From: Gluconacetobacter liquefaciens
Lineage (GTDB): Bacteria; Pseudomonadota; Alphaproteobacteria; Acetobacterales; Acetobacteraceae
Assembly (NCBI RefSeq): GCF_003350405.1
Contig: NZ_QQAW01000008.1
Location: 162,868 to 196,939, forward strand
DNA: 34,072 nucleotides
Reading direction: 5' to 3'
A program made the position numbers and the translations under genes. Positions 9,429 to 23,896 of this stretch are shown piece after piece. Below the pieces are notes generated by a model that was not told the DNA's origin, did no database searches, and was given only the letters and a program-made list of their open reading frames with translations. Each line of letters opens with the position of its first letter. Within the stretch, counting starts at the first letter, position 1.

Positions 9429-9467
9429 GAGGGCACCAGAAAAAACCTTCTTGCTTCTGGTGTCCTC
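9429..9467 (-). terminator. Hairpin between the VanB-like gene and the receptor remnant
   Basis: The arms GAGGGCACCAGAA (9429-9441) and TTCTGGTGTCCTC (9455-9467) pair at 12 of 13 positions around a 13-base loop. It lies 51 bases past the stop of the minus-strand reductase gene. Only a short T-rich stretch follows on the minus strand, so it may be a weak terminator or an attenuator of the downstream receptor gene. Confidence 0.45.
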
Positions 9468-9518
9468 ATTATGTTCTGAAAACGAAATAGCTTGTCGGAT
9501 TAACGTTCCGATACCGCA

Positions 9519-10475
9519 TCAGAGATCCAGAACCAAACGTTGGGTTTTCGCACCGGAGCAACAGATCATCATGGTCTCGCCCCGCGCCTGTTCGTCGGCC
9601 GTCATGACGCTGTCGCGATGATCCGCAACGCCCTCGATAACGCGCGTCTCACACATGCCGCACACGCCTTCAGCGCAGGAAAACGTCGCGCTGACGCCTG
9701 CCGCGCGCACGGCTTCCAGAATGGTCTGGCCTTCGCCAACCTGAACGGTGCACCCGGTTCTGGCCAGAACGACCTCGAAACTGCGCTCCGTCGCGGGCGC
9801 GGCGACAGCCGTAAAATGCTCCCGGTGGCGCCGGGATTCCGGCAACGCCCCGAATGCGACATCAAACGCCTCCATCATGCGGGCGGGGCCACAGCAGTAA
9901 ACATGGCTATCCGTTGCACAGGTCTGTGCGACAGCCTCGAACGAAAGACGCTCCTGCCCATCCCGGGAAAAGTACATCTTCAGCCTCGCGGCTCCGCATT
10001 GACGGATTTCCTCTACAAAAGCAGCATCTTTCGCCGTGGCCGCCGCATAATGCATCTCCCAGGAAGCGCCGATCTGCATAAGACGCTGCGCCAGAGACCA
10101 GATGGGTGCGATACCGATCCCACCCGCGATCAGCACATGGTGCGGCGCAGGCTCGAACAACGCAAAGCGATCACGCGGCGCGCTGATTTCAAGTGTGTCG
10201 CCCACAGAAAGCTGACTGTGAATCCACGCCGACCCGCCACGGCTCCGAGGCTCCCGCAGCACGGCAATCTCATAGCGGTCGCGTGTTCCGGGGGCGCCTG
10301 TCAAGGAATACTGGCGGGTCAGTCCCTCATCGCAGGGGATCCGTACGTCGATATGCGCCCCCGCCACAACCGGCACCAGGGACGTGCTACTCTCCGGTTC
10401 CAGCGTGATGCCGAGTATTCGTGGTGTCAACGCGGCAAGCCGGGTAACACGTATCGGCAGGATAAGGTCGGTCAT
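9519..10475 (-). CDS. VanB-like ferredoxin reductase (FMN, NAD(P)H, 2Fe-2S)
   Basis: Reductase that passes electrons from NAD(P)H through flavin and a plant-type 2Fe-2S cluster to a Rieske oxygenase. From the ATG at 10475 it has 318 residues, typical of vanillate demethylase reductase and phthalate dioxygenase reductase. It has a flavin-binding RQYS at 54-57, a nucleotide-binding GGIGIAP at 118-124, and C-terminal cluster ligands Cys267, Cys272, Cys275 and Cys305 or Cys306. A possible ribosome-binding site (GGCGAG) precedes this start; longer upstream in-frame starts lack family similarity. The natural partner in the window is the Rieske oxygenase at 15226-16416, encoded 5 kb away. Divergent from the acetamidase gene. 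Confidence 0.9.
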   Translation of the reverse strand: MTDLILPIRVTRLAALTPRILGITLEPESSTSLVPVVAGAHIDVRIPCDEGLTRQYSLTGAPGTRDRYEIAVLREPRSRGGSAWIHSQLSVGDTLEISAPRDRFALFEPAPHHVLIAGGIGIAPIWSLAQRLMQIGASWEMHYAAATAKDAAFVEEIRQCGAARLKMYFSRDGQERLSFEAVAQTCATDSHVYCCGPARMMEAFDVAFGALPESRRHREHFTAVAAPATERSFEVVLARTGCTVQVGEGQTILEAVRAAGVSATFSCAEGVCGMCETRVIEGVADHRDSVMTADEQARGETMMICCSGAKTQRLVLDL

Positions 10476-10640
10476 AGCAAACTCGCCACAATCGGAAGGG
10501 TTGAAAATGTCCTTCTTCTGACAATCATCGGCATTCACGTAAAAACAAGACGGACCGCAGGCTTGTGCGCGCGTGTCAAGGATTAGGGCGCGCTGGCACA
10601 ATTCTATGGCCAACTCTTGTTATTATGATGTTGCATAAGA

Positions 10641-10663
10641 GGATCGTTCCGATCCCCGGGATC
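10641..10663. promoter_or_regulatory. Two overlapping palindromes in the divergent reductase/acetamidase intergenic region
   Basis: GGATCG-TTC-CGATCC (10641-10655) and GATCCC-C-GGGATC (10651-10663) are both perfect inverted repeats and share five bases, so only one can form as a hairpin at a time. They lie 24 bases before the ATG at 10687, between two divergent genes. An operator or a switch in the 5' leader is possible; the regulator is unknown. Confidence 0.4.
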
Positions 10664-10686
10664 TTTATGACGCAGAGGTATTACCC

Positions 10687-11764
10687 ATGGTTCTGATGTG
10701 CGACTCAGGCTCGACGCGCCCCCTCGTCGCGCCAAAAGCCCTTCATCACCTCAAGGCCGCCCCCCCAAAATGTGCACTGGGGCTATTTCGATGCCTCGCT
10801 GGCTCCGGCTCTCGTCATCGAATCCGGCGATCTGATTCAGGCCGAAGCCCTGACGCATCATGCCGGTGATGACCCAGCACTCCTGATGGACGAGGCGATG
10901 CACCAGATCTGGCGCGCCATTCCCGAAGCGGACCGTCATCCGGGCGTGCATCTGATGACCGGCCCGATCTATGTGCGCGATGCGAGACCCGGCGATATGC
11001 TGGAGGTCCGCTACCTCGCCATGACTCCGCGATTCCGTTACGGCTCCAATCTTGCCGCCCATTGGGGACAGCTCTATTCCGACCTCGGCAAGCGCGAGCG
11101 CGTCACGATCTATGGGCTCGATCCAGCGACCAACACGGCCGAAGCGGTGTATGCCTATGACGTCCATGAAAAATACCTGACACCAGGTCGTGTCACGGAC
11201 TGCCCGGAATGCGACCGCCAACCCGCCCTGGCTGGCGTGCGCGTCCCCGTCCGCCCCCATCTGGGTACGGCGGGCGTCGCACCTGACGCCCTCGGACGCG
11301 TCAGCACCATCCCGCCCGGCCTGCACGGTGGCAACATCGACAACTGGCGGATCGGCGCCGGGGCCACGATGTATTACAAGGTACAGGTTGATGGTGGGCT
11401 GTTTTCGATCGGAGATCCGCATATCAGTCAAGGCGACGGGGAAATCAGCGGCACGGCCATCGAGGCATCGCTCGATGTTCTGTTTCAGGTTATCCTGCGG
11501 CGCGATTTTACCTTCCGCTCGCCTCTTCTTGAAACGCCGGACCATTTCATTGTTCATGGCTTCGGAGACAGCCTCGACGTGGCGGCCAAGGAAGCCTCTC
11601 TCGACATGCTCTCGCTCATCAGGGAAACGGGTTTGTCATCGGACGATGCCTACTCGCTTCTGTCGATTTCCGGAGATCTCGGGATCACGCAGGTCGTTGA
11701 CGGCACTGTGGGCGCCCATATGAAAATCCGACGTGATATCCTGCCTCACCCCCGAAAATCCTGA
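10687..11764 (+). CDS. Acetamidase/formamidase-family amidohydrolase, frameshifted in a poly-C run near the 5' end
   Basis: Member of the FmdA/AmdA family, which hydrolyses formamide, acetamide or related short amides to acid and ammonia. The main frame starts at codon 10772 (VHWGYFDASL) and runs 330 residues to RRDILPHPRKS. The family normally has residues before this point. They are found in another frame from ATG 10687, which follows AGAGG by nine bases and reads to LHHLKAAP. Reading six instead of seven C at 10760-10766 joins the two as KAAPQNVHWGYF, a good family match. The gene is thus one base out of frame at the tract; a GTG at 10772 could still give a shortened protein but lacks a ribosome-binding site. 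Followed closely by an MFS gene. Confidence 0.85.
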
Positions 11765-11784
11765 CCTCATACAGGAGCGCGAAC

Positions 11785-13057
11785 GTGAGCCTTGAATCCA
11801 CGCGACGCGACGCAATCGGGCTGATGGCTGCCTGCACCATCGGGGCAATGACCGACGTCACACCGGTCGTCATGATCACCTTCGGCCTGCTTCTGGCCCC
11901 CATCGCCGATACTTTCCACTGGTCGCGCGGCTTCGTGAGCATGGCCTTTCTGATGCTCTCTCTTGGCATGGCCGCCGGTTCGCCCATTGCCGGACGCATC
12001 TCCGATCGCTTTGGAGCCAGGCGCACGATCCTCGTGGGCTTCATCCTCTATGCTGGCGCGCTTGCGCTGGTCGGGCTTCTCCCGGCCAACCGTGTCGTCT
12101 TTCTCGCCATTTTCGCGGCCATCGGGTTCACAGGCGCCTTACCCAGCACGATGATGTTCGCCCGCGTGGTCGCGTCGTGGTTCGACGCACGACGCGGGCT
12201 CATGCTCGGCATCATGGCCGGACTGGGCAACGGCATAGGGGCCAGCATCATGCCCGCGATCGCATTGGCGATCATGGCGCATACGGGATGGCGCGCGACT
12301 TACCCTGTACTGGCGTTGACGGTCCTCATTGCGGCATTCCCCATGGGCTTCCTCTGACTAACGGACGCCGCCAATCCTGTCGCGCTCCCGAAAGCCCGCG
12401 CCCACGAAGTCCCTGCCGACGACATCGCTTTTCCGCCCGATACCTTTGACGGGATGACGCATCAGGACACACTGGGAAGTGCCACGAGACAGCCCGTTTT
12501 CTGGATCATCCTTCTGACCATCGCCTCGGGCGCGGGCTGCATCACGGCCCTGATCGCCCATCTCGTACCGATCCTGACATCGCGAGGGCTTGCAGTCCCC
12601 CAGGCCTTGCTGGTCATGTCCGTCATGACCGGAACCTGCGCCGTGTGGCAGGTTGTCATCGGCCATATCATGGACCAGACACGCGCGGGCGCGCCATCAC
12701 CCCCTTCTATCTCGCGGCCCTAGCGGGTGTTCTCCTGCTCCAGAGCCGCAGCTTCGCAGCCCTCCTGGGTGGAGGATTGCCATCGGTGTCGCCATGGGAA
12801 CCGAGTTCGGAGCACTGCCTTACGTGGTATCCCCGTATTTCGGGCTTGCGGCTTACGGACGCATCGCGGGCGTCATGTATGCGGCCGTCATGATGGCACA
12901 GGGAATAACCCCCGTCCTGATAGACATGTCCTATGATCACACGGGAGACTACGGATGGTCTCTGCGCGCCATGACGATCGTCTTCGCCTGTGGCAGCCTC
13001 GCCCTATGCGCTCTGCCGCCCTATCCGACCCGCCTGCGGGCAACCAGGCCGACTTAA
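11785..13057 (+). pseudogene. Decayed MFS transporter
   Basis: Starts at GTG 11785 with GGAG seven bases upstream, 20 bases after the amidohydrolase, so the two were probably co-transcribed. The first half is a good MFS N-terminal domain, with the loop motif GRISDRFGARR and six membrane segments. It stops at an in-frame TGA (12355-12357). The same frame continues with a cytoplasmic loop and further membrane segments (QPVFWIILLTIASG) to 12723. The remaining segments lie in two other frames: ITPFYLAALAG from about 12690, and IGVAMGTEFGALPYVV from about 12775 to the stop at 13057. One stop and two frameshifts make loss of function likely. It probably imported the amide or its precursor. Confidence 0.85.
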
Positions 13058-13093
13058 GGCCCCTTTCCTGGGATGAGGGCTGGTTTCACCGCT

Positions 13094-13717
13094 TCAGTTG
13101 ACCTCCCACGCCGTCAGGATTTCCTGTGTCGTGACCGGCGTGGCGCAATGCGTTGACAGGATCGCCAGCGCATTCTCATGCGTGCGCGGGTCAAAGGCGG
13201 CACACGCATCGCTGGCAATAAAGATATCGAAATCGCGATGAAAGCCGTCGCGCGCGGTCGCATCAACGCAGCAGTCGGTCGTCAGACCGCACAGCATAAG
13301 GGTTTCGACGCCACTTTCACGCAGACGGCCTGCGAGATCCGTGCCCGCAAAGGCGCTGTAGAGCAGCTTTTCGACCTCCGGCTCTCCTTCCTCCGGAGAA
13401 ATCCGATAGTAATCCACGCCCGGAGTACCCGCACGGCAAATCGCAATGTCATCGGCCATTCCTGCACGCACCATGAATCGTCTGAGCGCACGCGGATCAG
13501 TTTCGGGGCGCGTGACCACGCGAATGAACCACGGCGTCACGCCGGCACGCCGCGCGGCGGTAATGAGTGTTTCCGCGCACGATATGGCTGCCTCGACGGG
13601 CTCAAGCGCCATACCCGCATGCGCCATTGCAAAACCGGGCGCTCCGAAATCGTTCTGGATGTCGATGACCAGAAGTGCCGTACGGGAGGGCGCGATGTCC
13701 TGAGGCGAGAGCGTCAT
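13094..13717 (-). CDS. Isochorismatase-fold cysteine hydrolase
   Basis: Cysteine hydrolase of 207 residues with a complete triad: Asp19 (VIDIQNDF), Lys117 (VEKLLYSAF) and Cys150 (TTDCCVDATARDGF). The segment around the nucleophile is like those of RutB, biuret hydrolase and N-carbamoylsarcosine amidase, which cleave ureido or carbamoyl groups. Its start overlaps the stop of the upstream MFS gene by four bases (ATGA), so transport and hydrolysis are coupled. With the RutA-like and RutF-like genes of this set it makes a partial match to the Rut pyrimidine route. Substrate unknown; only 29% or so of the RutB N-terminal context is present, and the resemblance rests on motifs. Confidence 0.87.
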   Translation of the reverse strand: MTLSPQDIAPSRTALLVIDIQNDFGAPGFAMAHAGMALEPVEAAISCAETLITAARRAGVTPWFIRVVTRPETDPRALRRFMVRAGMADDIAICRAGTPGVDYYRISPEEGEPEVEKLLYSAFAGTDLAGRLRESGVETLMLCGLTTDCCVDATARDGFHRDFDIFIASDACAAFDPRTHENALAILSTHCATPVTTQEILTAWEVN

Positions 13718-14958
13718 GCTTCATCCCGAAGGCGAGGGCGGCGCAAAAAGGTAACGGCGACCGTAAGAACCAGCCCCAGCGCGCCGAATGCCATGAAGAT
13801 CGCACGAAAGCTGCCTATGTTGTCATGGATCGCGCCCCCGAACCAGGGACCAAAGGCCGCCGCCGTCGAGATCAGACACATCGTCGCATAGAGTTCGAGA
13901 TTCTGCCGCGTGCCGAAATATTCGAGTAGCAGCATGGCACTGGCGACGTAGGACAGGCCCACACCAAGCCCCATCGTCAGCACGAAGACGCAAAGCGTCA
14001 GGCTGCTCTGAGGAAGCAGAAGATCGACGGCCGCGAGCGTCATGGCGCCGGTAGCTGCAACCGTGAGCACGCGCGCGCCCATGATCCGTCCAACCTCGCC
14101 GGCGAAAAACGATCCGGCGGCAGCAAACAAAGCCACGAGCGACATGATTTCAGCCGCATGCGCCGATGAAAGGCCATGTTCGGTAAAATGCTGGACCGAA
14201 AAGCCGTGCAATGTCGTGCTGATGGCAAGGCAACCCGTGTAGGATGCGACAATCACCCAGAATGCCGGAACGCTCAGCGCGGCCCTGGCGGGCCAGCCCG
14301 CGGTGCGGATCGTATCGTCATGGGCGTGGCCGAAAGGAATGCCCCGCACCACGAGAGCCGCGGCAACCCCGCACAGGCCCGTCGTCAGCGCACAAAGCCA
14401 CCAGAATGGACGCCAGGCATGAAAGACATTGTTAACGCCCAGATAGAAAAGCGGCCCCGCGATCGAGCCCAGACCGCCGACGCCGAAATAGATCCCCATC
14501 GGACGGCTGGACTCTTCGAAGAGATTGGCCACGACATAGGTACCGGGCACCGTGCCGCCAATCGTAAATGCGCACCCGATCAGCAACGTCCCCAGATCGT
14601 ATTGAAGTTTGCTCGATGCGCTGGCCAGCAGCGCAAAACCCAGAGCCAGCAGCACGCCGGCGGCCACCAGCGTCGCAACGATTCCGAAGCGCCGGATGGC
14701 CATGGCAGGCAACGGACTGGTCAGGCCACAGGCAAGACCAAGCAGCGTGAAGCCGAACCCGGCATCGCTCCAACTCAGCTTCATGTCCGCGACCATGGCG
14801 GGCAGGACGACGCCGAGCGCATTGAATGAACCGGCCATGAGAAAGAAATAGAGGGCCGTTACGGCGGCCAGCGCGAAATACCGCCTGACTGTCGAAGGCG
14901 CGGGCTGATCCACTGGCGTCACCACAAGGATGTCCTCACTGGAAATGGCGAGAGGCAT
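13714..14958 (-). CDS. MFS transporter
   Basis: Major-facilitator permease with about twelve membrane segments, 414 residues from the ATG at 14958 (GGAG nine bases upstream). An in-frame ATG at 15030 after AGGGG is an alternative that would add 24 hydrophilic residues. Features include the central split between two six-helix halves, a cytoplasmic loop at about 185-215 (RGIPFGHAHDD), and a charged tail (FLRRPRLRDEA). It resembles the oxalate/formate or monocarboxylate antiporter type in general form, but this is a weak guide. It overlaps the cysteine hydrolase gene by four bases. It appears intact, unlike the other MFS gene of this set. Confidence 0.88.
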   Translation of the reverse strand: MPLAISSEDILVVTPVDQPAPSTVRRYFALAAVTALYFFLMAGSFNALGVVLPAMVADMKLSWSDAGFGFTLLGLACGLTSPLPAMAIRRFGIVATLVAAGVLLALGFALLASASSKLQYDLGTLLIGCAFTIGGTVPGTYVVANLFEESSRPMGIYFGVGGLGSIAGPLFYLGVNNVFHAWRPFWWLCALTTGLCGVAAALVVRGIPFGHAHDDTIRTAGWPARAALSVPAFWVIVASYTGCLAISTTLHGFSVQHFTEHGLSSAHAAEIMSLVALFAAAGSFFAGEVGRIMGARVLTVAATGAMTLAAVDLLLPQSSLTLCVFVLTMGLGVGLSYVASAMLLLEYFGTRQNLELYATMCLISTAAAFGPWFGGAIHDNIGSFRAIFMAFGALGLVLTVAVTFLRRPRLRDEA

Positions 14959-15225
14959 GGGACGGTTCTCCACCTCACGGACCTGCGCCCGCAAGGGCGG
15001 ATCGGGTCGGGTTATCCAAACACTGGCCATCAGCACCCCTGCGACGCCGTCGGGCATCTTCCGACGATAGACCACACCACAGGGATATTCTTGCGCTATG
15101 CGAACGGATTATATTCCGATCGCGCAACTTCGACAAATGCTGTCCACTTAAAAATCGTTTCAAAACTTCTCTTAAACGGTAGCACCCGGCAAAGACTCCT
15201 CCAGATATATGATTCAGGCAGGATC

Positions 15226-16416
15226 TTATCTTTTTCCGACTTCTACCTCGCCCCAGGCCTTACGGTAGCGCGGGACTAGCCAGGTATTGAACAGGCGCTG
15301 CGCACCTTCTTGCCAGGAATAGCGCCCGCGCGGGGCGAAGCGTGATCTCAACCCGACCTGCACCATCTCGTCAACATGCAGATCCTGGTCGATGATCTCG
15401 GTAGCCGCAAGAAATCCCATCGCCATTTTCTGATGATAGGCCGGATCGGCCTTGGCGCGCGGGGCCGTCAGGACACCCTGGTCCACACGATGGCTTTCAG
15501 GGCCATCCGCGCGCAGGATGAGATAAATCACCGAATCCACCGTCATGACGAGAGACAGAGTGGGAGGGACGTTGGCGAACACCATCCGATGGCGTTCATC
15601 GGCCGTCAGATCCGGGAAAACGGGCAGGACAGCGCGTTGCGTGGCATTGAAGGCCGCATCCGGATGCAGCGTCCGATTGGTCCGATAGTAGCCTGCCGTA
15701 TCCTCGCCCAGATCATCGGGAAATTCGGCCAGCTCGCTCGGGATGAAATCATGCAGCGGTCCCTGATGAAGCTTGCTGGCATGATACCCGTCGTTGTTGT
15801 TCTCGAACATGACCTTCCAGTTCCACGGATAGCGCTGCTCCTCGGCTGGCTTGTCGCCCTGGGCGTTCGGCAGGTCATAACCGCGCAGCACTTCCGACAC
15901 CTTGACCAGACGTGGCGCAAGCGGGGGAGCTTCCCTGTCGAAGTTGATGAACACGAAGCCTTCCCAGATTTCGAGCGCGAAGACCGGAAGGTTGAAATCC
16001 TCCTTGTGGAACCTGCACGAACGCTCCATCGCGGGGGCGGCCGCAAGCGTGCCGTCCAGCGCGTAGGTCCAGTGATGATAGGGACAGACAAAAGCGCGCG
16101 CCTTGCCGCTGCCTTCGGCGACCAGCATCGCGCGATGCTGGCAGACGCTGGACATGGCCCGCAACACGCCATCACGGCCCCGCGCGACGATCAACGGCTC
16201 ATCCGCGATGAACGACGTGAAATAGTCACCAGGGTTCGCTGCCCATGATTCACGTCCGACGCAGAGCCATTCCTTTGAAAAGATCGCTTTCTTCTCGAAT
16301 TCGTAGAACGCGGCATCCGTATAGCAGAGCGGCGGCAGGCTCTCGGCCTCTTCCGTCGGAAGGATGGATGTCTCCATCGCGTCGAACAGGGCATCGTCGA
16401 GGGGAATGCTCGTCAT
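15226..16416 (-). CDS. Rieske non-haem iron oxygenase, large (alpha) subunit
   Basis: Terminal oxygenase that activates O2 for ring dihydroxylation, monooxygenation or O-/N-demethylation. From the ATG at 16416 it has 396 residues. The Rieske cluster ligands are Cys92-x-His94 (VCQHRAM) and Cys111-xx-His114 (VCPYHHW). The mononuclear iron site includes His212 and His217 in FENNNDGYHASKLH, with a bridging Asp209; the third ligand is probably an Asp in IIDQDLHVDEM. No beta subunit follows, so it is likely a homomeric type such as VanA or the quaternary-amine oxygenases. Electrons may come from the VanB-like protein at 9519-10475. It is the last gene of the RutA-like operon, 30 bases after the TauD-type gene. 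Confidence 0.93.
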   Translation of the reverse strand: MTSIPLDDALFDAMETSILPTEEAESLPPLCYTDAAFYEFEKKAIFSKEWLCVGRESWAANPGDYFTSFIADEPLIVARGRDGVLRAMSSVCQHRAMLVAEGSGKARAFVCPYHHWTYALDGTLAAAPAMERSCRFHKEDFNLPVFALEIWEGFVFINFDREAPPLAPRLVKVSEVLRGYDLPNAQGDKPAEEQRYPWNWKVMFENNNDGYHASKLHQGPLHDFIPSELAEFPDDLGEDTAGYYRTNRTLHPDAAFNATQRAVLPVFPDLTADERHRMVFANVPPTLSLVMTVDSVIYLILRADGPESHRVDQGVLTAPRAKADPAYHQKMAMGFLAATEIIDQDLHVDEMVQVGLRSRFAPRGRYSWQEGAQRLFNTWLVPRYRKAWGEVEVGKR

Positions 16417-16446
16417 GGTCAATCCAGATCGCAAATGAAGGGGGAA

Positions 16447-17289
16447 TCAGAAGGGCTTGTCGCCCGCAACGGTCACGCGGAACCCGGATCTCGTCTGGGG
16501 GAAGTAATCCCAGATGGCCTGATGCTGCGTGCAGCGGTTGTCCCAGAACGCCACGGAATTCGGCTTCCAGCGGAAGCGCACCTGAAAATCGGCCGCCATG
16601 CAGTGGCGGTAGAGCATGCTCAGGACGGCGTCGCTTTCAGGCTTGGAAAGCTGCGGGATCCGCGTCGTATAGGACTGGTTCACGAAAAGGCACTTGCGCC
16701 CGGTCTCGGGATGCGTACGCACGACGGGATGCTCGTTGCACGGAAAAGTCTTGCCGTTATTGCCGACGATCGGGCGATAAACGTGCTCCCCGTCATGGAT
16801 TGCGGTCAGCCCGTCGAGGAAATGACGCATCGGCTCGGAGAGCGCGTCATAGGCCGCATACATCGACGAAAAACACGTATCGCCGCCATATTCCGGGACG
16901 GTTTTCATCGTGAGAATACTGCCCAGAGGCGGCTCCGCGTTGCACGAAAGATCCGAATGCCAGTTCTCACCGGCCACGAATTTCGAGTTCGCGTCGGCAT
17001 GAATGGCCACGACCTCCGGGTAATCCGGCAGCCCCGCGACACCCGAATGGATCGCAAGTTCGCCGAAAGCGCGGCCGAGGCGTAGATGGTCCTCATGCGA
17101 GATCGGCTGATCGCGGAAGAAGATCACCTGATGGCGCAGCAGCGCACCCCGCAGACCCTTCAGCATGCGGGCACCCAAGGGATGCGTCAGATCCACGCCC
17201 TCGATCTCGGCGCCAATCCGGGCCGTCATCGGACGGACAATGACATCACCTTCAAAGTCGATCACGTTCATTTCCACATCTCCGGGCAT
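16447..17289 (-). CDS. TauD/TfdA-family Fe(II)/2-oxoglutarate dioxygenase
   Basis: Dioxygenase of 280 residues with iron ligands His111 and Asp113 (NWHSDLSC) and His256 (CTQHQAIWDY); Arg267 or Arg271 binds 2-oxoglutarate. The start at 17289 is chosen because it overlaps the stop of the M20 gene (TAATG) and has GGAGG seven bases upstream. The distal motif (HQAIWDYFPQTRSGFRV) is typical of true TauD and TfdA enzymes, closer to them than that of the other two copies. It sits between an M20-family protein and a Rieske oxygenase, so it should act on the same compound or its breakdown product. Substrate unknown. Confidence 0.93.
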   Translation of the reverse strand: MPGDVEMNVIDFEGDVIVRPMTARIGAEIEGVDLTHPLGARMLKGLRGALLRHQVIFFRDQPISHEDHLRLGRAFGELAIHSGVAGLPDYPEVVAIHADANSKFVAGENWHSDLSCNAEPPLGSILTMKTVPEYGGDTCFSSMYAAYDALSEPMRHFLDGLTAIHDGEHVYRPIVGNNGKTFPCNEHPVVRTHPETGRKCLFVNQSYTTRIPQLSKPESDAVLSMLYRHCMAADFQVRFRWKPNSVAFWDNRCTQHQAIWDYFPQTRSGFRVTVAGDKPF

Positions 17290-18566
17290 TACTGGACCTC
17301 CGAAGCCGCCACGCCACAGACCTCAATCGCGGTCCGGGCATAGAGCAGCGTTGCCGTCACGAAATCGTCGAGCGTCGGGCGCCAGCGGCGCGGCCCGAAC
17401 GTGACCGCCGGGATCCCCGCGCGGTTGTAAACATTGTGGTCTCGCCACATGGAGGCATAGACCGGGTCGGCAACTTCAAGCTCCGCCCCGCGCACCGCAC
17501 GGTTGGCAGTCGCGATCGCTCCAAGCAGGGGCGTGACGGCCGTTTCATCCGCAACGCCACCCTGACGATAGGCGACACAGTCGAGCGCATGCGGACCGAT
17601 CCCGTCGAGCACGACTTCCATTTCCCGCCGGATATCCTGCACGCGATCGATGGCGGACAGCCCGACTTCGACGTAGAGCGCGCAAACGCCCGTCCCGCCA
17701 CCGAGCGCGTAGGGCAGGCCGCCGCGAATGGCGCCGATCTGCACCTTGGGGATTGTGGTCCCCCAGGCCGTTTCGAACCGGTGTGCCTGTTCGAAACGGG
17801 GCGCCCAGGCATGCAGCCGCGCGATGGCATCTCCCAGACGATAGACCGGATTGGGATGGTCCTTCAGCGGCAGGCTGGCATCGAACAGCGGCGTAAAGAT
17901 CTGCTCGCCATAAAGGCTGAGCCGGAAAATCGCATAACCGGCTCCCTGCGCCGTAACCGCGAAGTCCGTCCCTTCAGATGCGATCATGAAATCGGGCGCC
18001 ATGCCCCCATTAGCCAGAAGATAGGCGGCACCCACATCCTTGCCCGACTGCGCCACGCCCTCACGTCCGTCCACCGGATCAGGGCCGATTTCACCCGGAC
18101 AGGCCGCCATGTGGAGGCGCCCCGCCAGCCGGATTCCAGCCTTCTGGATGAGCGAACCCGCCATGAGAAAGCAAGCCATGGGACCACGATCATTCGCGAC
18201 CGCCGCCCCGGTGAAGACACCATCCCGCTCCGCGACGGGCTCTTCCGGCGCAGCTCCAGGCGGCACGCACCAACGAGCATCCTGCGGGTCCAGGCCGCCT
18301 TCGGTGTCGAGATGCGAAGCCATCAACAACTCGCGTGACGAAGCAGATCCATGACCGCCAAGAGTGCCGACGACATGAAAGCGCTCCGGAACAGCGGCGA
18401 CGCGGCGCGGGCGAAAGCCTTCCTCCGCCATCCAGCGTTCGACGTACTCTCCCGCTTCCCGCTCGTGGCCCTGAGGCGAGGCAATGCTGCAAAGCTCAAG
18501 GATGCGCCGACGCAGAAGGTCCCGATCCAGCAGAGCGTCCAGACGCCGGGTGAGCGCGTCCGTCAT
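17289..18566 (-). CDS. M20-family metallopeptidase-like protein
   Basis: Protein of 425 residues in the M20/ArgE/DapE amidohydrolase family, whose members remove acyl groups from amino acids and peptides with two zinc ions. Metal ligands can be placed at His85 and Asp87 (ASHLDTEG), Asp126 (VANDRG), Glu159, Glu198 (ASEGTDF) and His377 (WRDHNVYNR). The usual catalytic-base and metal pair Glu-Glu reads Gly158-Glu159 (CPGEIG), so the general base seems to be missing. The protein may be inactive, use another base, or bind without cleaving. The gene overlaps both neighbours (ATGA with the monooxygenase, TAATG with the dioxygenase), a sign of tight coupling. Confidence 0.85.
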   Translation of the reverse strand: MTDALTRRLDALLDRDLLRRRILELCSIASPQGHEREAGEYVERWMAEEGFRPRRVAAVPERFHVVGTLGGHGSASSRELLMASHLDTEGGLDPQDARWCVPPGAAPEEPVAERDGVFTGAAVANDRGPMACFLMAGSLIQKAGIRLAGRLHMAACPGEIGPDPVDGREGVAQSGKDVGAAYLLANGGMAPDFMIASEGTDFAVTAQGAGYAIFRLSLYGEQIFTPLFDASLPLKDHPNPVYRLGDAIARLHAWAPRFEQAHRFETAWGTTIPKVQIGAIRGGLPYALGGGTGVCALYVEVGLSAIDRVQDIRREMEVVLDGIGPHALDCVAYRQGGVADETAVTPLLGAIATANRAVRGAELEVADPVYASMWRDHNVYNRAGIPAVTFGPRRWRPTLDDFVTATLLYARTAIEVCGVAASEVQ

Positions 18567-19672
18567 GCGCCGTAGCGCGCCCGGAGTGCCGGAAGGACAT
18601 CTTTGGACAGTTTCTTCAGTCCCTGCTCGTAATCCGGGAAAATCAGCATGAGGCCGTCGAGATCGGTGTCGTCGATAACCTGCTCGATACGCTTGACGAT
18701 CGTCTCCGCCGAACCCGCAATATGCGGCGCCATGAAACCGGTCCTCGCCCGCGCCGTCATGGCGTTTTCCTTGCCGATTTCAGCATCGATCACACCATAG
18801 GCCCGCATCATGTTACGGAAGCCTTCCGCGTCAAAGCCTTCGCGGAACACATCCATCGTGGCCTCGGCCTCGGCATCCGTTTCACCCTGGACGATGATCG
18901 CCATAGCGTAGGTCCGCAGACGACGCCCGGCGGCCCTGGCCTTCTCCTTGGCGCGCTGGCTGATGGCGCGCATCTCCGCGTCGTCCCGGCCGCCAATAAA
19001 CAGCGCGTCCGTATTATGGATGGCGAAATCCATGCCCTTTTCGGACTGACCGGCAGCCACAACGAAGGGACGCGGCTTCTGGACCGGCTTGGGCTCCGAG
19101 ATACAATGGTCGAGCTTGATATACTTGCCGTCGACCGTAACCTCGCCGTCCTCTTCCCAGAGACGGCGAACGGCTTCCATCCACTCCCCGGCATAGTCGT
19201 AGCGCGCGTCATGCCCCAGCGTCTCGGGCCATGCGCCCATCTGGGAGAACTCGTCCTTGAATGCTCCCGGCACGACATTGAGACCCGCACGGCCATTGCT
19301 GACCTGATCCAGGGTGGCAATCATCTTGGCGACGACCGCCGGATTGTGCAGCAGTGTCTGAAACGTGGTCCAGATCTTCACCCGTTTGGTCTGGGCTGCG
19401 AGCGCGCTCATCAGGACGGTTGAATCGAGCGCCACTTCCCATTGATGATTGGCCCCGCCATAGCCCCGGAACTTGGCCATCGACATGATGAAGTCGAGAC
19501 CTATTTCTTCGGCCAGCAGGGCCGCGCGACGGTTGTATTCGTAGGAGCCGTCTACCTTCGGCGCGGTGGTGGACAGAATCCAGCCCCCGTTGGCGATCGG
19601 CATGAAAATCCCGAAATCCTTTCCTCCCTTCTCGGAAGGCAGGTCAAACACCGGGGATGAGATCGTGGGCAT
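18563..19672 (-). CDS. RutA-like FMN-dependent (luciferase-like) monooxygenase
   Basis: Bacterial luciferase-like monooxygenase of 369 residues. Segments such as DFGIFMPIANGGWI, LDFIMSMAKFRGYGG, NGRAGLNVVPGAF and LDGLMLIFPDYEQGL match the RutA group, in which the pyrimidine oxygenase RutA opens the uracil ring with a flavin-N5-peroxide. It is not necessarily RutA itself: no other uracil genes except hydrolase and reductase look-alikes are nearby, and related enzymes attack other rings. It needs reduced FMN, likely from the RutF-like reductase at 23348-23896. It is the first gene of an operon with the M20, TauD-type and Rieske genes and is divergent from the AraC regulator. The best marker of the chemistry of set B. 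Confidence 0.92.
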   Translation of the reverse strand: MPTISSPVFDLPSEKGGKDFGIFMPIANGGWILSTTAPKVDGSYEYNRRAALLAEEIGLDFIMSMAKFRGYGGANHQWEVALDSTVLMSALAAQTKRVKIWTTFQTLLHNPAVVAKMIATLDQVSNGRAGLNVVPGAFKDEFSQMGAWPETLGHDARYDYAGEWMEAVRRLWEEDGEVTVDGKYIKLDHCISEPKPVQKPRPFVVAAGQSEKGMDFAIHNTDALFIGGRDDAEMRAISQRAKEKARAAGRRLRTYAMAIIVQGETDAEAEATMDVFREGFDAEGFRNMMRAYGVIDAEIGKENAMTARARTGFMAPHIAGSAETIVKRIEQVIDDTDLDGLMLIFPDYEQGLKKLSKDVLPALRARYGA

Positions 19673-19815
19673 AGGGCCCTCTCCTTACTTGCTGGCCGAT
19701 CGTTTCGCAAACCGATTGCAAAATCCAAATAAATATTACGCATCCGGTCCACTCGGGTTCTTGTCTGAATGCGATGCTCATTTGTATGATCCCATACGAT
19801 TGGCGGGAGATCAAA
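19673..19815. promoter_or_regulatory. Divergent promoter region, RutA-like operon / AraC regulator
   Basis: This AT-richer gap separates the two divergent starts. It holds a repeated element, CCGATCGTTTCGCAAA followed by CCGATTGCAAAA (19700-19730), of the direct-repeat kind that AraC proteins often bind, and an inverted repeat GTATG-ATCC-CATAC (19784-19797). Both are visible in the sequence; a role in controlling the operon is inferred. Confidence 0.45.
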
Positions 19816-20829
19816 GTGCAACCATGGACATTCGACCTTGCAGATCATGCGGATCAGCCCGCCGCGACGGTCTGGCGACAGGCACTCGCGCGGCTTTCTC
19901 TTCCGGAAGCGATACTGTTCCCCCCTACGGACACCGAACGTCACGCCGAGCCGCACCAAAGGACGATCGGGCGTGTCACGCAGGTTATCACGCCGCTCGG
20001 AATTGAGATCACGCGCCTGACCGGATCGCCACAGCGAATCGCCGGCCGCTATTCGGCGCAGACGGATGGCGTCTGGCTGGCGATCCTGCTTCCTGAAGGC
20101 GATACATCCGACGGTCCTGCCGCCACCCTGGCGTCGAATGGCAAGATCTGGCCGCTGGCCGTGGGCGCGATCGGCTGCGGCCCTCTGGCCGCCGATGCCG
20201 TCCTGACATTGCCGCGCTCGTTTTCGATGCTTTATGTGCGGCTGCCGAGACTGGCCCTCCATTTCCGACTTCTCGCACCGACGCCGCTGCGCGTCGGCGT
20301 GCTGGACCCGACGCCGGGTATCCGACAGGTGCTCGCCGGATTTCTCCAGTCCCTCGGGCAGTCTCTGGAAGCCATGGACACGCGCCAGCTCCGCGCCATC
20401 GAGCTAGCACTGTCGGAATTGCTGATCGGTTGCGTTCTAAGCGACCCGGCCTATGGCGGCGGAGACCCACCGCTCAACCGCCGCATCGCCGCCATGCACA
20501 ATCTCTGCCAACTCATCGAATCGGAACTCACCGATCCCGATCTGACCATGACGGCCATCGCCCGCAAGCACGGCATCTCACCGCGTGGATTGCAGAAACT
20601 CTTTGCCGCAACCGGGCAAAATTTTAGTCAGTATCTCCGGCAGCGCCGTCTCGCCCGTTGTCATGACGATCTTGCAAGCCCGCTTTCCGCCCATCTCTCC
20701 ATCTCGGAGATCTGTTTCCGCTGGGGCTTCAACGACGCGGCGCATTTCAGCCGCAGCTTCCGGCAGGCTTATGATCTGACGCCGCGTGAATGGCGGCGCC
20801 AGGCGACAAATGTCGTCGCGGAGGACTGA
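19816..20829 (+). CDS. AraC-family transcriptional regulator
   Basis: Regulator of about 337 residues. The C-terminal 110 residues hold two helix-turn-helix motifs (LTMTAIARKHGISPRGLQK and ISEICFRWGFNDAAHFSRSF), the AraC/XylS signature. The N-terminal domain, by length and form, is like the AraC-binding-like domain of regulators of amine and aromatic catabolism such as FeaR. The GTG start at 19816 follows GGGAGA by five bases and is preferred; ATG codons at 19774 and 19786 are alternatives without a good ribosome-binding site. It is divergent from the RutA-like operon, which it probably controls. It ends 38 bases from the convergent VOC gene. Confidence 0.9.
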   Translation: MQPWTFDLADHADQPAATVWRQALARLSLPEAILFPPTDTERHAEPHQRTIGRVTQVITPLGIEITRLTGSPQRIAGRYSAQTDGVWLAILLPEGDTSDGPAATLASNGKIWPLAVGAIGCGPLAADAVLTLPRSFSMLYVRLPRLALHFRLLAPTPLRVGVLDPTPGIRQVLAGFLQSLGQSLEAMDTRQLRAIELALSELLIGCVLSDPAYGGGDPPLNRRIAAMHNLCQLIESELTDPDLTMTAIARKHGISPRGLQKLFAATGQNFSQYLRQRRLARCHDDLASPLSAHLSISEICFRWGFNDAAHFSRSFRQAYDLTPREWRRQATNVVAED

Positions 20830-20867
20830 GCACGGCCTCCAGACTCGGAAACCTCCCTCTCCCTTAC

Positions 20868-21353
20868 CTATTCGCGCGTATAACTGTCTGGAATGGCGGG
20901 ATTGGATCCTGCCTTACCCCACAGAAGGATTTCGTTCCCCCAGGGATCCATGAACGCGTGGTTGTAGCCGTTGAACGTGGACCAGTAGTGATCACGCCAT
21001 AACTCCGTCGCACCGCGCGCCACAGCTTCCGAAAGTATGCGTTCAGGCGTATCGTCATCGCCGATCAGCAGCCAGACACGCGGCTTGCGCCCCTCATGGG
21101 ACAACTCCCGCGGCGCAACGCCTTCGGGCTGCGGATGGGGCCGCGCATTATCGGCCTTGAAAATTCCGATATGCAGATTTCCGATTTCGCTGTCGGTTCC
21201 ATCGGGATTGCGGAACTGTCCGCCCGGCACCATCCGATGATAAAGACCTTCCGGCTTCGGGTCGTTCCGCCATCCAAACACTTCGGAATAAAATGTTGCC
21301 GCTGCCGACGGATCGTCCGCAGGAATATCAACAAAAATCAGTGTATCAGGCAT
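20868..21353 (-). CDS. VOC-superfamily (glyoxalase/bleomycin-resistance-like) protein
   Basis: Protein of 161 residues from ATG 21353. It has the beta-alpha-beta-beta-beta pattern of the vicinal oxygen chelate fold: DTLIFVDIPADDPSAAATFY at the N-terminus and HAFMDPWGNEILLW at the C-terminus, where the final Glu is a possible metal ligand. VOC proteins include extradiol dioxygenases, glyoxalases, epimerases and resistance proteins; this one is too short for the usual two-domain extradiol enzyme. It lies 75 bases after the TauD-type gene, in the same direction. Specific function is unknown. An in-frame ATG at 21383 is an alternative start. Confidence 0.83.
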   Translation of the reverse strand: MPDTLIFVDIPADDPSAAATFYSEVFGWRNDPKPEGLYHRMVPGGQFRNPDGTDSEIGNLHIGIFKADNARPHPQPEGVAPRELSHEGRKPRVWLLIGDDDTPERILSEAVARGATELWRDHYWSTFNGYNHAFMDPWGNEILLWGKAGSNPAIPDSYTRE

Positions 21354-21428
21354 GAAATCCCATCCAAACGAAACGCTGGCCATTCCATGATCGGGGGCCA
21401 GTCATAAAACCTGCCGAAAGTCCGTCGC

Positions 21429-22301
21429 TCAGTAGGGGCGATCGCCTTTCACCCAGAGACGATGCATCGTGCGTATATATTTCTTGTCGTCGAACAACGT
21501 GCCCGTATGAAGCGTGCAGCGGTTATCCCACATCAGGAGATCGCCCACCTGCCACTTATGCCGGTAAACGAATTCCTCGCCCGTCATGAACTCCACCAGT
21601 TCATCGAGGATCGACAGATCCCTAGGGTCGTCCTGCCCGGAGATCTCCGTCACCGTGCCTGTCGAAGGCCAGAGCGCGCGTCGGCCATCCTTCGGATGAA
21701 CGCGGATCAGGGGGTGGTCGACGTCTGGATTGTCGCGGATCTGCTCGGGGGTCAGTTCGCGCCTTTGATGCTCACGGGTTTCCATGAAATGCCGGTATGA
21801 ATGATGCAACCTGAGTTTTTCGAGGGCTTCGCGTCGCTCGGCCGGGAGGGCCTCATAGGCGGCCACACCGTCGGCAATCAGCGTATCGCTTCCCTCCGCC
21901 GGAACTTCGACTGCATAAAGCATCGTGCTCATGACCGGCTCTTCCTTGTAGGAATAGTCGGTATGCCAGCCCACCCCGTCATTGTGAGCGCCAATCGGAC
22001 GACCGTTCTCGATCCGGTTGGATAGCACGTAGATTTCCTCGAAACCGGGAAGCGTGAAGTCCTGGATCGTGTGTCCCTCGGGCGTTCCGACGCGGCGGAT
22101 AAACCGCATCAGGTCGGCTGGATCGAGCTTCTGGCCGCGCAGGAGAAGCGCGCCATGCCGATTGAACGCATCCACGACTTCGTCCAGCGTGGCATCATCG
22201 GCTGTGGCAATATCGAGCCCAATGATTTCCGCACCGAAACCGGAGCCCGGCTTGAGCGGTACGATGCGAAGAGCTGTCTGGGTTGCCATCGAGTCCGCCA
22301 T
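21429..22301 (-). CDS. TauD/TfdA-family Fe(II)/2-oxoglutarate dioxygenase
   Basis: Third TauD-type dioxygenase, 290 residues from ATG 22301 (AGAGGAG nine bases upstream). Iron ligands are His113 and Asp115 (GWHTDYSY) and His265 (CTLHTGTLFDDKKY); Arg277 and Arg281 are available for 2-oxoglutarate. The C-terminal end (TMHRLWVKGDRPY) and the ENG-RPIGAHNDGVGWH segment make it more like the copy in set A (3362-4201) than the one in the RutA-like operon. It is likely to be in one operon with the VOC gene and is divergent from the LigB/YgiD-type gene. Substrate unknown. Confidence 0.93.
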   Translation of the reverse strand: MADSMATQTALRIVPLKPGSGFGAEIIGLDIATADDATLDEVVDAFNRHGALLLRGQKLDPADLMRFIRRVGTPEGHTIQDFTLPGFEEIYVLSNRIENGRPIGAHNDGVGWHTDYSYKEEPVMSTMLYAVEVPAEGSDTLIADGVAAYEALPAERREALEKLRLHHSYRHFMETREHQRRELTPEQIRDNPDVDHPLIRVHPKDGRRALWPSTGTVTEISGQDDPRDLSILDELVEFMTGEEFVYRHKWQVGDLLMWDNRCTLHTGTLFDDKKYIRTMHRLWVKGDRPY

Positions 22302-22523
22302 CTTCTGCTTCTCCTCTGGATGCCGCCGCGACGTGCGTCACATGCTGTCGTTTCGATCTAGACATTGTTCCGGCATCCCCGCTTGCCTGAATGCGACGCA
22401 GACTATCATGGAAAAGCAAGTTGCGCTCGCGCCGACATCATGACACTTGGCGCGCCCGCAGTGCCGCAGTCATGATATTTCAAGCGCCTTCACGGCCGTG
22501 ATCAAACAGGAAAGGAACGATCC
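22302..22523. promoter_or_regulatory. Divergent promoter region, TauD-type/VOC and YgiD-type/RutF-like genes
   Basis: These 222 bases separate two divergent starts, each with its own Shine-Dalgarno sequence (AGAGGAG on the minus strand; AGGAAAGGAA ahead of 22524 on the plus strand). No convincing operator palindrome or standard promoter hexamers were found. Confidence 0.35.
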
Positions 22524-23330
22524 ATGCGGATGCCCGTCATATTTTTTGGGCATGGAAGCCCGGCCATCGCCTTGCAGGACAACGCAACAACGCAACTCTG
22601 GCGGCGTCTCGCCCTGCGGATCGAGCGCGATTACGGTCGGCCACGCGCCATCCTTTCCATCTCAGCCCACTGGCTGACACGCGGCGTCGGCGTGACGGCC
22701 ATGACACATCCACAAACCATTCACGATTTCGGCCGTTCGCTGCCCAGCGCCCTGTTCGACATCCAATATCCCGCGCCGGGCAGCCCTGAAGTCGCCCGTG
22801 AGGTCGCCGCTCTACTGGCGCCGGAGCGGGTCGTCCTCGATGAAGGCGACTGGGGTCTGGATCATGGAACGTGGTCGGTCCTGTGCAAAGCATGGCCCGA
22901 CGCGGACATTCCCGTCGTGCAGCTCAGCCTCGATGCCCTGCGCTCGCCCCGAGATCATTACGCACTGGCCCAGAAATTGCAGCCGCTCCGAGAAGCAGGC
23001 GTGCTCATCATCGGCACGGGCAATATCGTACATAACCTGCCGCGCATGAACTGGGGGGCGCAGAACTGTGAGCCCTATCCCTGGGCCAAGACGTTCGACG
23101 ATCATATCGTCAATGCCATCGCCGCCAGAGACATCAATGGCGTAGTTGATTACGAAGCACTCGGAGACGCCGCCACGCTCTCCGTCCCCTTACCCGATCA
23201 TTACTGGCCCCTGCTTTATACGCTGGGTACGACCACCGCTGCCGACCGTCCCGACTTCGAACCGCGACATATCGAACACGGCTCGCTCAGCATGACGAGC
23301 GTTGCCTGGTGGCCCGCTGAAGCCGCTTGA
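22524..23330 (+). CDS. LigB/YgiD-type extradiol ring-cleavage dioxygenase (DODA-like)
   Basis: Class III extradiol dioxygenase family protein of 268 residues, the size of E. coli YgiD and plant 4,5-DOPA dioxygenase. Candidate metal ligands are His10 (FFGHGSP), His49 (ISAHW) and His226 (PDHYWPLLY), with a catalytic His114 in GLDHGTWSVL. The family cleaves catechol rings next to the hydroxyl pair; YgiD works on DOPA-like molecules. Here it could open a ring hydroxylated by the other oxygenases of set B, an inference from context. The start has AGGAAAGGAA just upstream, and the RutF-like gene follows after 17 bases, so the two are co-transcribed. Confidence 0.9.
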   Translation: MRMPVIFFGHGSPAIALQDNATTQLWRRLALRIERDYGRPRAILSISAHWLTRGVGVTAMTHPQTIHDFGRSLPSALFDIQYPAPGSPEVAREVAALLAPERVVLDEGDWGLDHGTWSVLCKAWPDADIPVVQLSLDALRSPRDHYALAQKLQPLREAGVLIIGTGNIVHNLPRMNWGAQNCEPYPWAKTFDDHIVNAIAARDINGVVDYEALGDAATLSVPLPDHYWPLLYTLGTTTAADRPDFEPRHIEHGSLSMTSVAWWPAEAA

Positions 23331-23347
23331 TGACAGGAGACAGCCTC

Positions 23348-23896
23348 ATGTCGGCTCCGACCCCAGATATTTCGGTGGACGCATTCCGCGCCGCCATGAG
23401 CCAGCTTGGCGCCCCTGTGGTAGTGGTCACTACCGATGGGCAGGAAGGACGGCATGGCCTCACGGTCTCGGCCGTCTGTAGCGTCAGCGATACGCCGCCC
23501 ACGCTCCTGGTCTGCCTGAATCGCAGCAACCGTTCTTATGCCGCTTTCGCGGGCAATCGTGTACTGGGTTTCAACATTCTCGGCGAAGGCGATCAGGCTC
23601 TCGCCGCCGCCTTCGCCAGTTCCCGCCTGCAGCCTGAAGAGCGCTTCTCCCATGGAACGTGGCATCAGGCCGTAACCGGCGCGCCCCTGCTGGACGGGGC
23701 CGTGGTCTCCCTCGACTGCACGGTCGAGGCCGTCCATGTTTCCGGCACCCATGATGTTCTGATGTGTCATGTGAAGGCCATTCGGCATGGCGCTGATGAC
23801 ATTGACGTCCTGACGTGGTTCGATCGACGCTTCCATGTTCTGCCCAGAACAAAAACCATGAAGCGTCCCGGGTTTTCGGGAGGCTCCTATCTGTGA
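23348..23896 (+). CDS. RutF-like flavin reductase, C-terminal end rewritten by an IS insertion
   Basis: NAD(P)H:FMN reductase of the flavin_reduct family, 182 residues from the ATG at 23348 (AGGAG eight bases upstream). Motifs VVVVTTDGQEGRHGLT, SAVCSVSDTPPTLLVCLNR, GTHDVLMC and WFDRRFH closely match RutF, the partner of RutA. It should supply reduced FMN to the RutA-like enzyme, which is encoded 4 kb away on the other strand. The IS3-family element is inserted after the codons for KTM, and its first bases supply the last eleven residues (KRPGFSGGSYL) and the stop. Without the IS the frame would end two codons later (MP-stop), close to the usual RutF end. Activity may well survive. Confidence 0.92.
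   Translation: MSAPTPDISVDAFRAAMSQLGAPVVVVTTDGQEGRHGLTVSAVCSVSDTPPTLLVCLNRSNRSYAAFAGNRVLGFNILGEGDQALAAAFASSRLQPEERFSHGTWHQAVTGAPLLDGAVVSLDCTVEAVHVSGTHDVLMCHVKAIRHGADDIDVLTWFDRRFHVLPRTKTMKRPGFSGGSYL

What the first reader, a model, noticed from the sequence alone, without database searches (positions are those of the whole stretch)
15226..19672. Overlapping operon of RutA-like, M20, TauD-type and Rieske oxygenase genes
Three different O2-dependent chemistries (flavin, 2-oxoglutarate/iron, Rieske iron) are encoded in one operon whose first three genes overlap by 1-4 bases. I know of no described pathway with this set. It may be a new route for a nitrogen heterocycle or an N-acylated aromatic.
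Basis: partly seen in the sequence, partly recalled or inferred. Interest (0 to 1): 0.75.

Follow-up and report, generated by a model that had tools for sequence, protein, structure and literature searches.

The report
Conserved Rut-like N-heterocycle degradation island
These genes belong to a widely shared bacterial gene set, for which no description was found, that probably opens a uracil-type ring and then burns the rest of a nitrogen-rich ring compound, possibly vitamin B2 or its breakdown product lumichrome.

Summary
The four genes are real and lie where stated. The operon is longer: LLM, "M20", TauD, Rieske, MFS, cysteine hydrolase (IHL), facing an AraC gene, inside a 15.2-kb block 95% identical to a Kozakia plasmid between two IS3-type repeats. 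The "M20" is closest in sequence and predicted fold to 5-nitroanthranilate aminohydrolase (NaaA), an aromatic-amine deaminase. LLM, IHL and flavin reductase resemble RutA, RutB and RutF, below family cut-offs; the LLM keeps RutA's oxygen-pocket residues. The set is not strain-specific: LLM+M20+TauD+Rieske lie together in 41 of 79 loci from six bacterial groups; 38 of 79 also have IHL, an extradiol dioxygenase and a formamidase-like amidase. No describing paper was found in an open-licence library.

Best reading: a Rut-like uracil-ring-opening module joined to an aromatic-ring-cleavage module. Flavin (riboflavin or lumichrome) is the leading candidate: the enzyme types fit the old Pseudomonas RF products oxamide and 3,4-dimethyl-6-carboxypyrone, and 15 of 79 loci carry a ribokinase-like gene. 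Substrate and reactions are inferred, not shown.

The parts
18563..19672 (-). LLM flavin monooxygenase, RutA-like (369 aa); proposed uracil-type ring opener
   Evidence: TIGR03612 RutA 252 bits, cut-off 498; best PDB RutA 5wan E 5.6e-56; RutA residues T105/N134/V136/F224 identical in 72 of 72, L65 is Met in 72 of 72
17289..18566 (-). M20-fold NaaA-like hydrolase (425 aa); proposed hydrolytic deaminase
   Evidence: best PDB 5-nitroanthranilic acid aminohydrolase 5k8p E 3.7e-64; 140 of 397 identical; predicted model nearest to NaaA; H85 D87 D126 E159 E198 invariant 82 of 82
16447..17289 (-). Fe(II)/2OG dioxygenase, TauD family (280 aa)
   Evidence: PF02668 5.1e-70; nearest solved sequence taurine dioxygenase; HSD 111-113 and H256 of WDNRCTQH
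15226..16416 (-). Rieske oxygenase alpha subunit (ORF from TTG 16434; likely start ATG 16416)
   Evidence: nearest solved sequence carnitine monooxygenase; Rieske motif at ORF residues 98-120, D215/H218/H223/D351 identical in 49 of 49
13714..15075 (-). MFS transporter, same strand, 150 nt after Rieske
   Evidence: PF07690; found near the operon in the 6 acetic-acid-bacterial loci
13094..13717 (-). IHL: isochorismatase-family cysteine hydrolase, RutB/biuret-hydrolase-like; overlaps MFS by 4 bases
   Evidence: PF00857 1.1e-39; biuret amidohydrolase and RutB models, below cut-offs; a homologue in 73 of 79 loci
19774..20829 (+). Divergent AraC-family regulator
   Evidence: PF12833 5.4e-22
20868..21383 (-). 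VOC/glyoxalase-fold protein
   Evidence: 40 of 79 loci
21429..22301 (-). Second TauD-family dioxygenase (TauD2)
   Evidence: PF02668 2.1e-68; 33 of 79 loci
22524..23330 (+). LigB-type extradiol dioxygenase (4,5-DOPA dioxygenase family, DODA)
   Evidence: NF007914 288.7 bits, above cut-off 233; 40 of 79 loci
23327..23896 (+). Flavin reductase, best model RutF; probable LLM partner
   Evidence: TIGR03615 184 bits, cut-off 254.75; homologue in 32 of 79 loci
9519..10613 (-). FNR-ferredoxin reductase; probable Rieske partner
   Evidence: PF00111/PF00175; GbcB/BenC-type models, below cut-offs; found in only 12 of 79 loci
10687..11764 (+). AmdA acetamidase/formamidase homologue; frame changes near its 5' end relative to Kozakia
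   Evidence: formamidase model, weak (60.5 bits, cut-off 500); 46 of 79 loci
11785..13057 (+). Second MFS transporter, reading frame interrupted
8552..9360 (-). TonB-dependent receptor, frame-shifted and cut short at an IS copy
   Evidence: PF07715 plug
8618..23858 (.). 15.2-kb block 94-95% identical to Kozakia baliensis pKB16680_1, ending at the inner ends of two IS3-type direct repeats (8194-8624, 23859-24355)
   Evidence: ALIL pseudoknots at 8398 and 24129; integrase core at 24168-24944

Best explanation
The operon is part of a mobile, widely conserved catabolic gene set for a nitrogen heteroaromatic that contains a uracil-like (2,4-dioxopyrimidine) ring fused to a ring that ends as a catechol. 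Step 1 (inferred): the RutA-like LLM, fed FMNH2 by the RutF-like reductase, cleaves an amide C-N bond of the uracil-type ring. Step 2 (inferred): the RutB/biuret-hydrolase-like IHL removes the exposed carbamoyl or ureido group. Step 3 (inferred): the NaaA-like M20 enzyme replaces the remaining ring amine (ortho to the new carboxylate, as in anthranilate) by OH. Step 4 (inferred): TauD and TauD2 oxidise the product or its side chains. Step 5 (inferred): the Rieske oxygenase with its reductase dihydroxylates the ring, the LigB-type dioxygenase opens the catechol, and the AmdA amidase hydrolyses the released amide. The leading substrate candidate is flavin (riboflavin or lumichrome). Shown: gene content, homology, conserved residues, synteny. 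Not shown: any reaction or the substrate. The confidence below is for the fused-uracil N-heteroaromatic class; for flavin itself I give about 0.3.
Against: No reaction is shown. LLM, IHL and reductase score below the RutA, RutB and RutF cut-offs. The P450, TPP decarboxylase and molybdenum hydroxylase of the lumichrome route have no counterpart among the 30 window ORFs given to Pfam, so TauD would have to stand in. The SDR that could make the pyrone is in 40 of 79 loci but in none of the 6 acetic-acid-bacterial ones, and the Kozakia SDR and nitroreductase gave no match in the window. The reductase meant for the Rieske is in only 12 of 79 loci. The Rieske is nearest to carnitine monooxygenase, by recall a C-N-cleaving enzyme, not an alpha/beta ring dioxygenase as in the Lum pathway. 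Arg289, altered in NaaA entry 5k8p, aligns with Gly290 here, so substrate contacts differ from NaaA's. Nine of 79 loci carry an AtzA/5'-deoxyadenosine-deaminase-like hydrolase, which flavins do not obviously need. Core-only loci in Bacillota (0 of 7 with TauD or Rieske at my thresholds) may handle another substrate; two Caulobacter genomes (Root343, BIN43) have both a core-only and a fuller locus. No FMN riboswitch in 13 sources. No ribokinase-like gene in the 6 acetic-acid-bacterial loci.
Confidence: 0.55

Rival explanations
1. A pyrimidine nucleobase or nucleoside pathway (uracil, thymine or a 5-substituted uracil): LLM-IHL-M20-reductase replace RutA-B-C/D-F, and M20 deaminates an aminoacrylate. 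TauD and Rieske trim substituents.
For: RutA/B/F resemblance; a nitroreductase above the malonic-semialdehyde-reductase cut-off in L057 (298 bits, cut-off 152), with relatives in 6 of 79 loci; OmpK-type porin in the Paraburkholderia and Thalassolituus loci; a uridine-phosphorylase-like gene, below cut-off, in the Paenibacillus agri locus L078.
Against: Gives no role to the tightly linked Rieske, extradiol dioxygenase and AmdA (39 of 79). The Kozakia nitroreductase scores only 33 bits on the same model. It fits the core-only loci better than the window.
Confidence: 0.2
2. A purine or methylxanthine pathway: Rieske and TauD N-demethylate or hydroxylate, the AtzA-like enzyme deaminates, LLM and IHL open the uracil half of xanthine, AmdA hydrolyses formamide.
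For: AtzA/deaminase-like gene in 9 of 79 and ribokinase-like gene in 15 of 79 loci; AmdA is formamidase-like, weakly.
Against: The Rieske matches methylxanthine demethylase NdmA only at E 3.6e-4; the LigB-type dioxygenase has no place.
Confidence: 0.1
3. Breakdown of the thiamine pyrimidine (HMP) or a similar aminopyrimidine.
For: Four Bacillota loci carry an NMT1/THI5-type binding protein; the one tested (L040) has as best solved match a formylaminopyrimidine-binding protein (E 6.5e-21). M20 and AmdA could remove the amine and acetamide.
Against: The same binding protein also matches sulfonate/taurine families; no role for Rieske plus extradiol dioxygenase.
Confidence: 0.06
4. One reading: an N-acylated aromatic whose acyl group the M20 removes, followed by Rieske and TauD oxidation.
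Against: M20 is clearly closer to NaaA; position 158, the peptidase general base by recall, is Gly or Ala in 82 of 82; the IHL and RutA-like LLM would be unneeded.
Confidence: 0.05
5. A chance neighbourhood of unrelated catabolic genes.
For: The block is bounded by IS copies and some genes are broken.
Against: Four-gene set in 41 of 79 loci across six groups in different orders; 7 of 12 control genes in 0 of 79.
Confidence: 0.02

Closest known systems
Rut pyrimidine utilisation pathway (RutABCDEFG, E. coli)
   Same: RutA-like LLM, RutB-like cysteine hydrolase, RutF-like flavin reductase; a RutE-like nitroreductase in some relatives
   Different: All below family cut-offs in the window; NaaA-like M20 and no RutC/RutD recognised; adds TauD, Rieske, extradiol dioxygenase and amidase
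Lum lumichrome pathway, Nocardioides simplex (Sinha et al. 2025, PMC12746152, main text read)
   Same: Logic of uracil-ring opening, ureido removal, amine hydrolysis, later Rieske then extradiol cleavage; a 24-kDa hydrolase (LumI) at the ureido step
Pseudomonas RF riboflavin degradation (Stadtman and co-workers; seen only as summarised and cited in PMC12746152)
   Same: Reported products urea, oxamide and 3,4-dimethyl-6-carboxypyrone fit the enzyme types here
   Different: Strain not preserved and no enzymes reconstituted according to that paper, so no direct comparison is possible
5-nitroanthranilic acid aminohydrolase NaaA (PDB 5k8m-5k8p; Bradyrhizobium origin recalled)
   Different: Asp126 here is Cys in NaaA, Asp201 is Asn, Gln276 is Ala; NaaA Arg289 aligns with Gly290

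Membership tests
RutA (TIGR03612) | Score above the curated cut-off 498.3 bits | tested here: not met
   252.3 bits
RutA-type N5-oxygenating LLM | Oxygen-pocket residues T105, N134, V136 (and L65, F224) | tested here: met
   T, N, V, F identical in 72 of 72; L65 is Met in 72 of 72, so 4 of 5 (residues from PMC7662398 passages; the numbering offset of 19 was inferred by me from the letters)
RutA-type N5-oxygenating LLM | Uracil amide cleavage with FMNH2 and O2 | not testable with these tools
   no assay
M20 peptidase/deacylase | Catalytic Glu before the metal-binding Glu (EE motif, recalled) | tested here: not met
   Gly in 76 and Ala in 6 of 82 at position 158
M20 peptidase/deacylase | M20 fold | tested here: met
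NaaA-like aminohydrolase | Full-length homology and fold of the solved enzyme | tested here: met
NaaA-like aminohydrolase | Same active-site residues | tested here: inconclusive
   H85, D87, G158, E159, E198, SMWRD shared; D126, D201, Q276 and the Arg289 position differ
Rut pathway | rutA-G gene set including RutC and RutD | tested here: inconclusive
   A-, B- and F-like genes present below cut-offs; no RutC or RutD named among the 30 window ORFs given to Pfam; 13 window ORFs went to NCBIfam
Lum lumichrome pathway | P450 LumU, TPP pair LumK/L, xanthine oxidase LumJ | tested here: not met
   no such family among the 30 window ORFs given to Pfam; genes elsewhere in the genome were not searched for
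Lum lumichrome pathway | Homology to LumH, LumI, LumM, LumC/D, LumE | not testable with these tools
   Lum sequences could not be fetched
Rieske oxygenase | [2Fe-2S] CxH..CxxH and facial triad | tested here: met
   motif at 98-120; H218, H223, D351 and D215 identical in 49 of 49; triad roles assigned by pattern
TauD Fe(II)/2OG dioxygenase | HxD...H facial triad | tested here: met
   H111-S-D113 and H256 in the window protein; PF02668
4,5-DOPA extradiol dioxygenase (NF007914) | Score above cut-off 233 | tested here: met
   288.7 bits

The most novel reading that the evidence does not exclude
This is the missing gene set of the Pseudomonas RF type of vitamin B2 breakdown, or a close variant. A flavin-dependent enzyme of the RutA type destroys the uracil ring of the flavin cofactor family itself, an anthranilate-type metal aminohydrolase deaminates the resulting aminoquinoxaline carboxylate, TauD dioxygenases take the place of P450 and molybdenum enzymes, and a Rieske/LigB pair yields oxamide and, after oxidation, the dimethyl-carboxypyrone. 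It would recur in Caulobacter, sphingomonads, Nitrospirillum and acetic acid bacteria, and travel on mobile DNA at least among the last.
Probability: 0.28. Interest if true: 0.82.

Novelty: new variant of a known kind. Interest (0 to 1): 0.62.

Why it matters
It points to a recurrent aerobic pathway for which no description was found, and links RutA-type flavin chemistry, metal-dependent aromatic deamination and Rieske/extradiol ring cleavage. If the substrate is flavin, it would supply candidate genes for a route reported in 1958 whose strain was not preserved, in culturable organisms, and would make lumichrome turnover in water, soil and on plants traceable from genomes. Even if the substrate is another heterocycle, the module is a clear target for enzyme discovery.

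Tried and rejected
M20 as acetylornithine-type deacylase: rejected on the NaaA match and the missing Glu. Methylxanthine demethylation as main role: weak NdmA match. Riboflavin lyase beside the cluster: the extra LLM in L076 matches YtnJ/MoxC best, and riboflavin lyase is last of the 11 sequences listed at E 1e-20; the extra LLM in L078 was only placed in the NtaA/DmoA family. Riboswitch evidence: none for FMN or TPP in 13 sources. Paper search for NaaA or M20: 15 listed, none relevant by title.

Counting caveats: of 148 relatives found, only the best 80 (79 distinct loci) were returned; 68 were never seen. Several loci are cut by contig ends, and two genomes contribute two loci each, so k of 79 are counts of loci, not of independent events. 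Identity thresholds were chosen by me to separate paralogues. Group labels were typed from record titles; L055 (isolate name) and L062 (likeness of its neighbourhood) were placed by me without a family name in the title. The query labelled TBDR_n is in fact the AraC-AmdA fusion protein of L103, not a receptor.
Full report
OBSERVATION. On the minus strand: LLM 19672..18563, M20 18566..17289, TauD 17289..16447 and Rieske 16434..15226 (likely start ATG 16416). The first three overlap by 4 and 1 bases; the fourth does not overlap. The operon continues with an MFS transporter (15075..13714) and an isochorismatase-family cysteine hydrolase, IHL (13717..13094, 4-base overlap), and faces a divergent AraC gene (19774..20829). 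Next to it lie VOC, a second TauD, a LigB-type extradiol dioxygenase and a RutF-like flavin reductase; further on, an AmdA amidase and an FNR-ferredoxin reductase.

SETTING. The genome is probably a Gluconacetobacter: a same-genus genome, G008, has a contig with the number and length of a G. sacchari LMG 19747 contig and the cluster at the same place. Window 8618-23858 is 94-95% identical to Kozakia baliensis plasmid pKB16680_1, and the identity stops at the inner ends of two IS3-type direct repeats (ALIL pseudoknots; integrase core). M20 is present in 3 of 14 genus genomes, this one included. This looks like a mobile catabolic island. Relative to Kozakia, the TonB receptor, the second MFS gene and the 5' end of AmdA have interrupted frames here, and the nitroreductase and SDR of the Kozakia block gave no match, so the island may be partly decayed or the assembly may contain errors. 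The six genes of the operon are open.

CONSERVATION. A protein search of plasmids (3 records) and one scan of species genomes (148 relatives, best 80 kept, 79 loci) gave the neighbourhoods. LLM and IHL accompany M20 in 71 of 79. LLM, TauD and Rieske are all present beside M20 in 41 of 79. Rieske, DODA and AmdA occur together in 39 of 79. Seven genes (LLM, IHL, M20, TauD, Rieske, DODA, AmdA) are together in 38 of 79. By group the four-gene set occurs in Acetobacteraceae 6 of 6, Pseudoxanthomonas 2 of 2, Caulobacterales 18 of 29, Nitrospirillum/Azospirillum 4 of 4, Alteromonadaceae 3 of 3, Sphingomonadaceae 8 of 12, Paenibacillaceae/Bacillaceae 0 of 7, Hyphomonadaceae 0 of 8 and others 0 of 8. 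Gene order differs among groups while content stays, as expected for a pathway. Of 12 control genes 7 gave 0 of 79; ADH gave 1, the ABC genes 6 and 4, and the paralogues TauD3 and IHL2 46 and 18. In Paraburkholderia, Acinetobacter and Thalassolituus the core is MFS-LLM-IHL-M20-flavin reductase with an AraC regulator; the Bacillota loci carry LLM, M20 and IHL, 3 of 7 with a flavin reductase of that type.

FURTHER CLUES. A ribokinase-like gene (in L103 TIGR02152 245 bits, cut-off 300) lies in 15 of 79 loci: ten sphingomonads, four Caulobacterales and one Pseudoxanthomonas; in L103 it stands just upstream of LLM. For scale, the window's own 4.17-Mb genome has six matches to this model, one strong, so roughly 0.4 to 2.3 hits would be expected in 79 stretches of 20 kb; relatedness among loci means this is only a guide. 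Some loci add an AtzA/deaminase-like hydrolase (9 of 79), a third TauD (12 of 79; 13 loci) or a RutE-like nitroreductase (6 of 79). Four Bacillota loci (three Paenibacillus, one Bacillus sp. FJAT-27264) have an NMT1/THI5-type binding protein; the one tested is nearest to a formylaminopyrimidine-binding protein. No Rfam riboswitch was found in 13 sources.

HOW IT PROBABLY WORKS. A RutA-like LLM, a RutB-like hydrolase and a RutF-like reductase suggest oxidative opening of a uracil-like ring. If that ring is fused to an aromatic ring, removal of the ureido part leaves an amine next to a carboxylate on an electron-poor ring, which is the substrate pattern of NaaA. This parallels the published lumichrome pathway (hydrolytic opening by LumH, ureido removal by LumI, amine hydrolysis by LumM, then decarboxylation, oxidation, Rieske and extradiol steps; PMC12746152, parts 1-3 of 6 read, which hold the text up to the reference list, and passages), but with different enzymes at several steps. 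The same paper summarises the older Pseudomonas RF route: urea and oxamide among the products, a dimethyl-carboxypyrone, no enzymes reconstituted, strain not preserved. By my reasoning, Rieske attack on the ring-fusion carbons of dimethylquinoxalinedione would give 4,5-dimethylcatechol plus oxamide; LigB-type cleavage and oxidation would give that pyrone; AmdA could hydrolyse oxamide. The dehydrogenase for the last oxidation is not identified in the window. Flavin is therefore the leading candidate (about 0.3), within a broader claim (0.55) of a fused-uracil N-heteroaromatic. Pyrimidine, purine and thiamine-pyrimidine rivals remain open.

NOVELTY. No paper was found that holds 4 of 6 describing terms. 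One search listed four papers; passages of two were seen and describe RutA and an ordinary rut operon. Searches on lumichrome and riboflavin catabolism, NaaA (listing) and quinoxaline with Caulobacter (none) gave no description of this cluster. The library holds only open-licence papers, so a description elsewhere cannot be excluded. A preprint (PMC12934955, passages) says the known RcaE-type riboflavin cluster appears specific to Actinomycetota and Devosia. The perspective PMC12752717 was read in its first of two parts. I rate this a new variant of a known kind: a Rut/Lum-like heterocycle pathway with a new enzyme set.

A motif position in TauD was corrected (H256), the number of groups with seven genes is six, and the structure result, the missing SDR and nitroreductase, the 12-of-79 count of the Rieske reductase and the Arg289 difference were added.

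Noticed in passing
8618-23858, with repeats 8194-8624 and 23859-24355: Composite-transposon-like island shared at 94-95% identity with a Kozakia baliensis plasmid.
   Followed up: partly
8552-9360, 11785-13057, 10687-11764: TonB receptor, second MFS gene and AmdA have interrupted reading frames compared with Kozakia.
   Followed up: partly
L103 11404-13800: About 790-aa protein combining an AraC-type regulator with an AmdA/formamidase-like domain; at 50% identity or more in 17 loci (11 sphingomonad, 4 Hyphomonas-type, 2 Pseudoxanthomonas). Possibly an amide-sensing regulator.
   Followed up: no
L047, L049, L053, L062: These loci hold two M20 paralogues in one neighbourhood.
   Followed up: no
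3362-6804: A third TauD (3362-4201), ABC transporter genes and a second isochorismatase-family hydrolase (5824-6804) lie outside the island; a 91%-identical TauD3 lies a few kb from the cluster in G. sacchari (L031, L038).
   Followed up: partly
L054/L089 and L056/L066: Two Caulobacter genomes carry both a core-only and a fuller version of the locus.
   Followed up: partly
L029: An Acinetobacter baumannii plasmid carries the core LLM-IHL-M20-reductase module amid IS elements.
   Followed up: no
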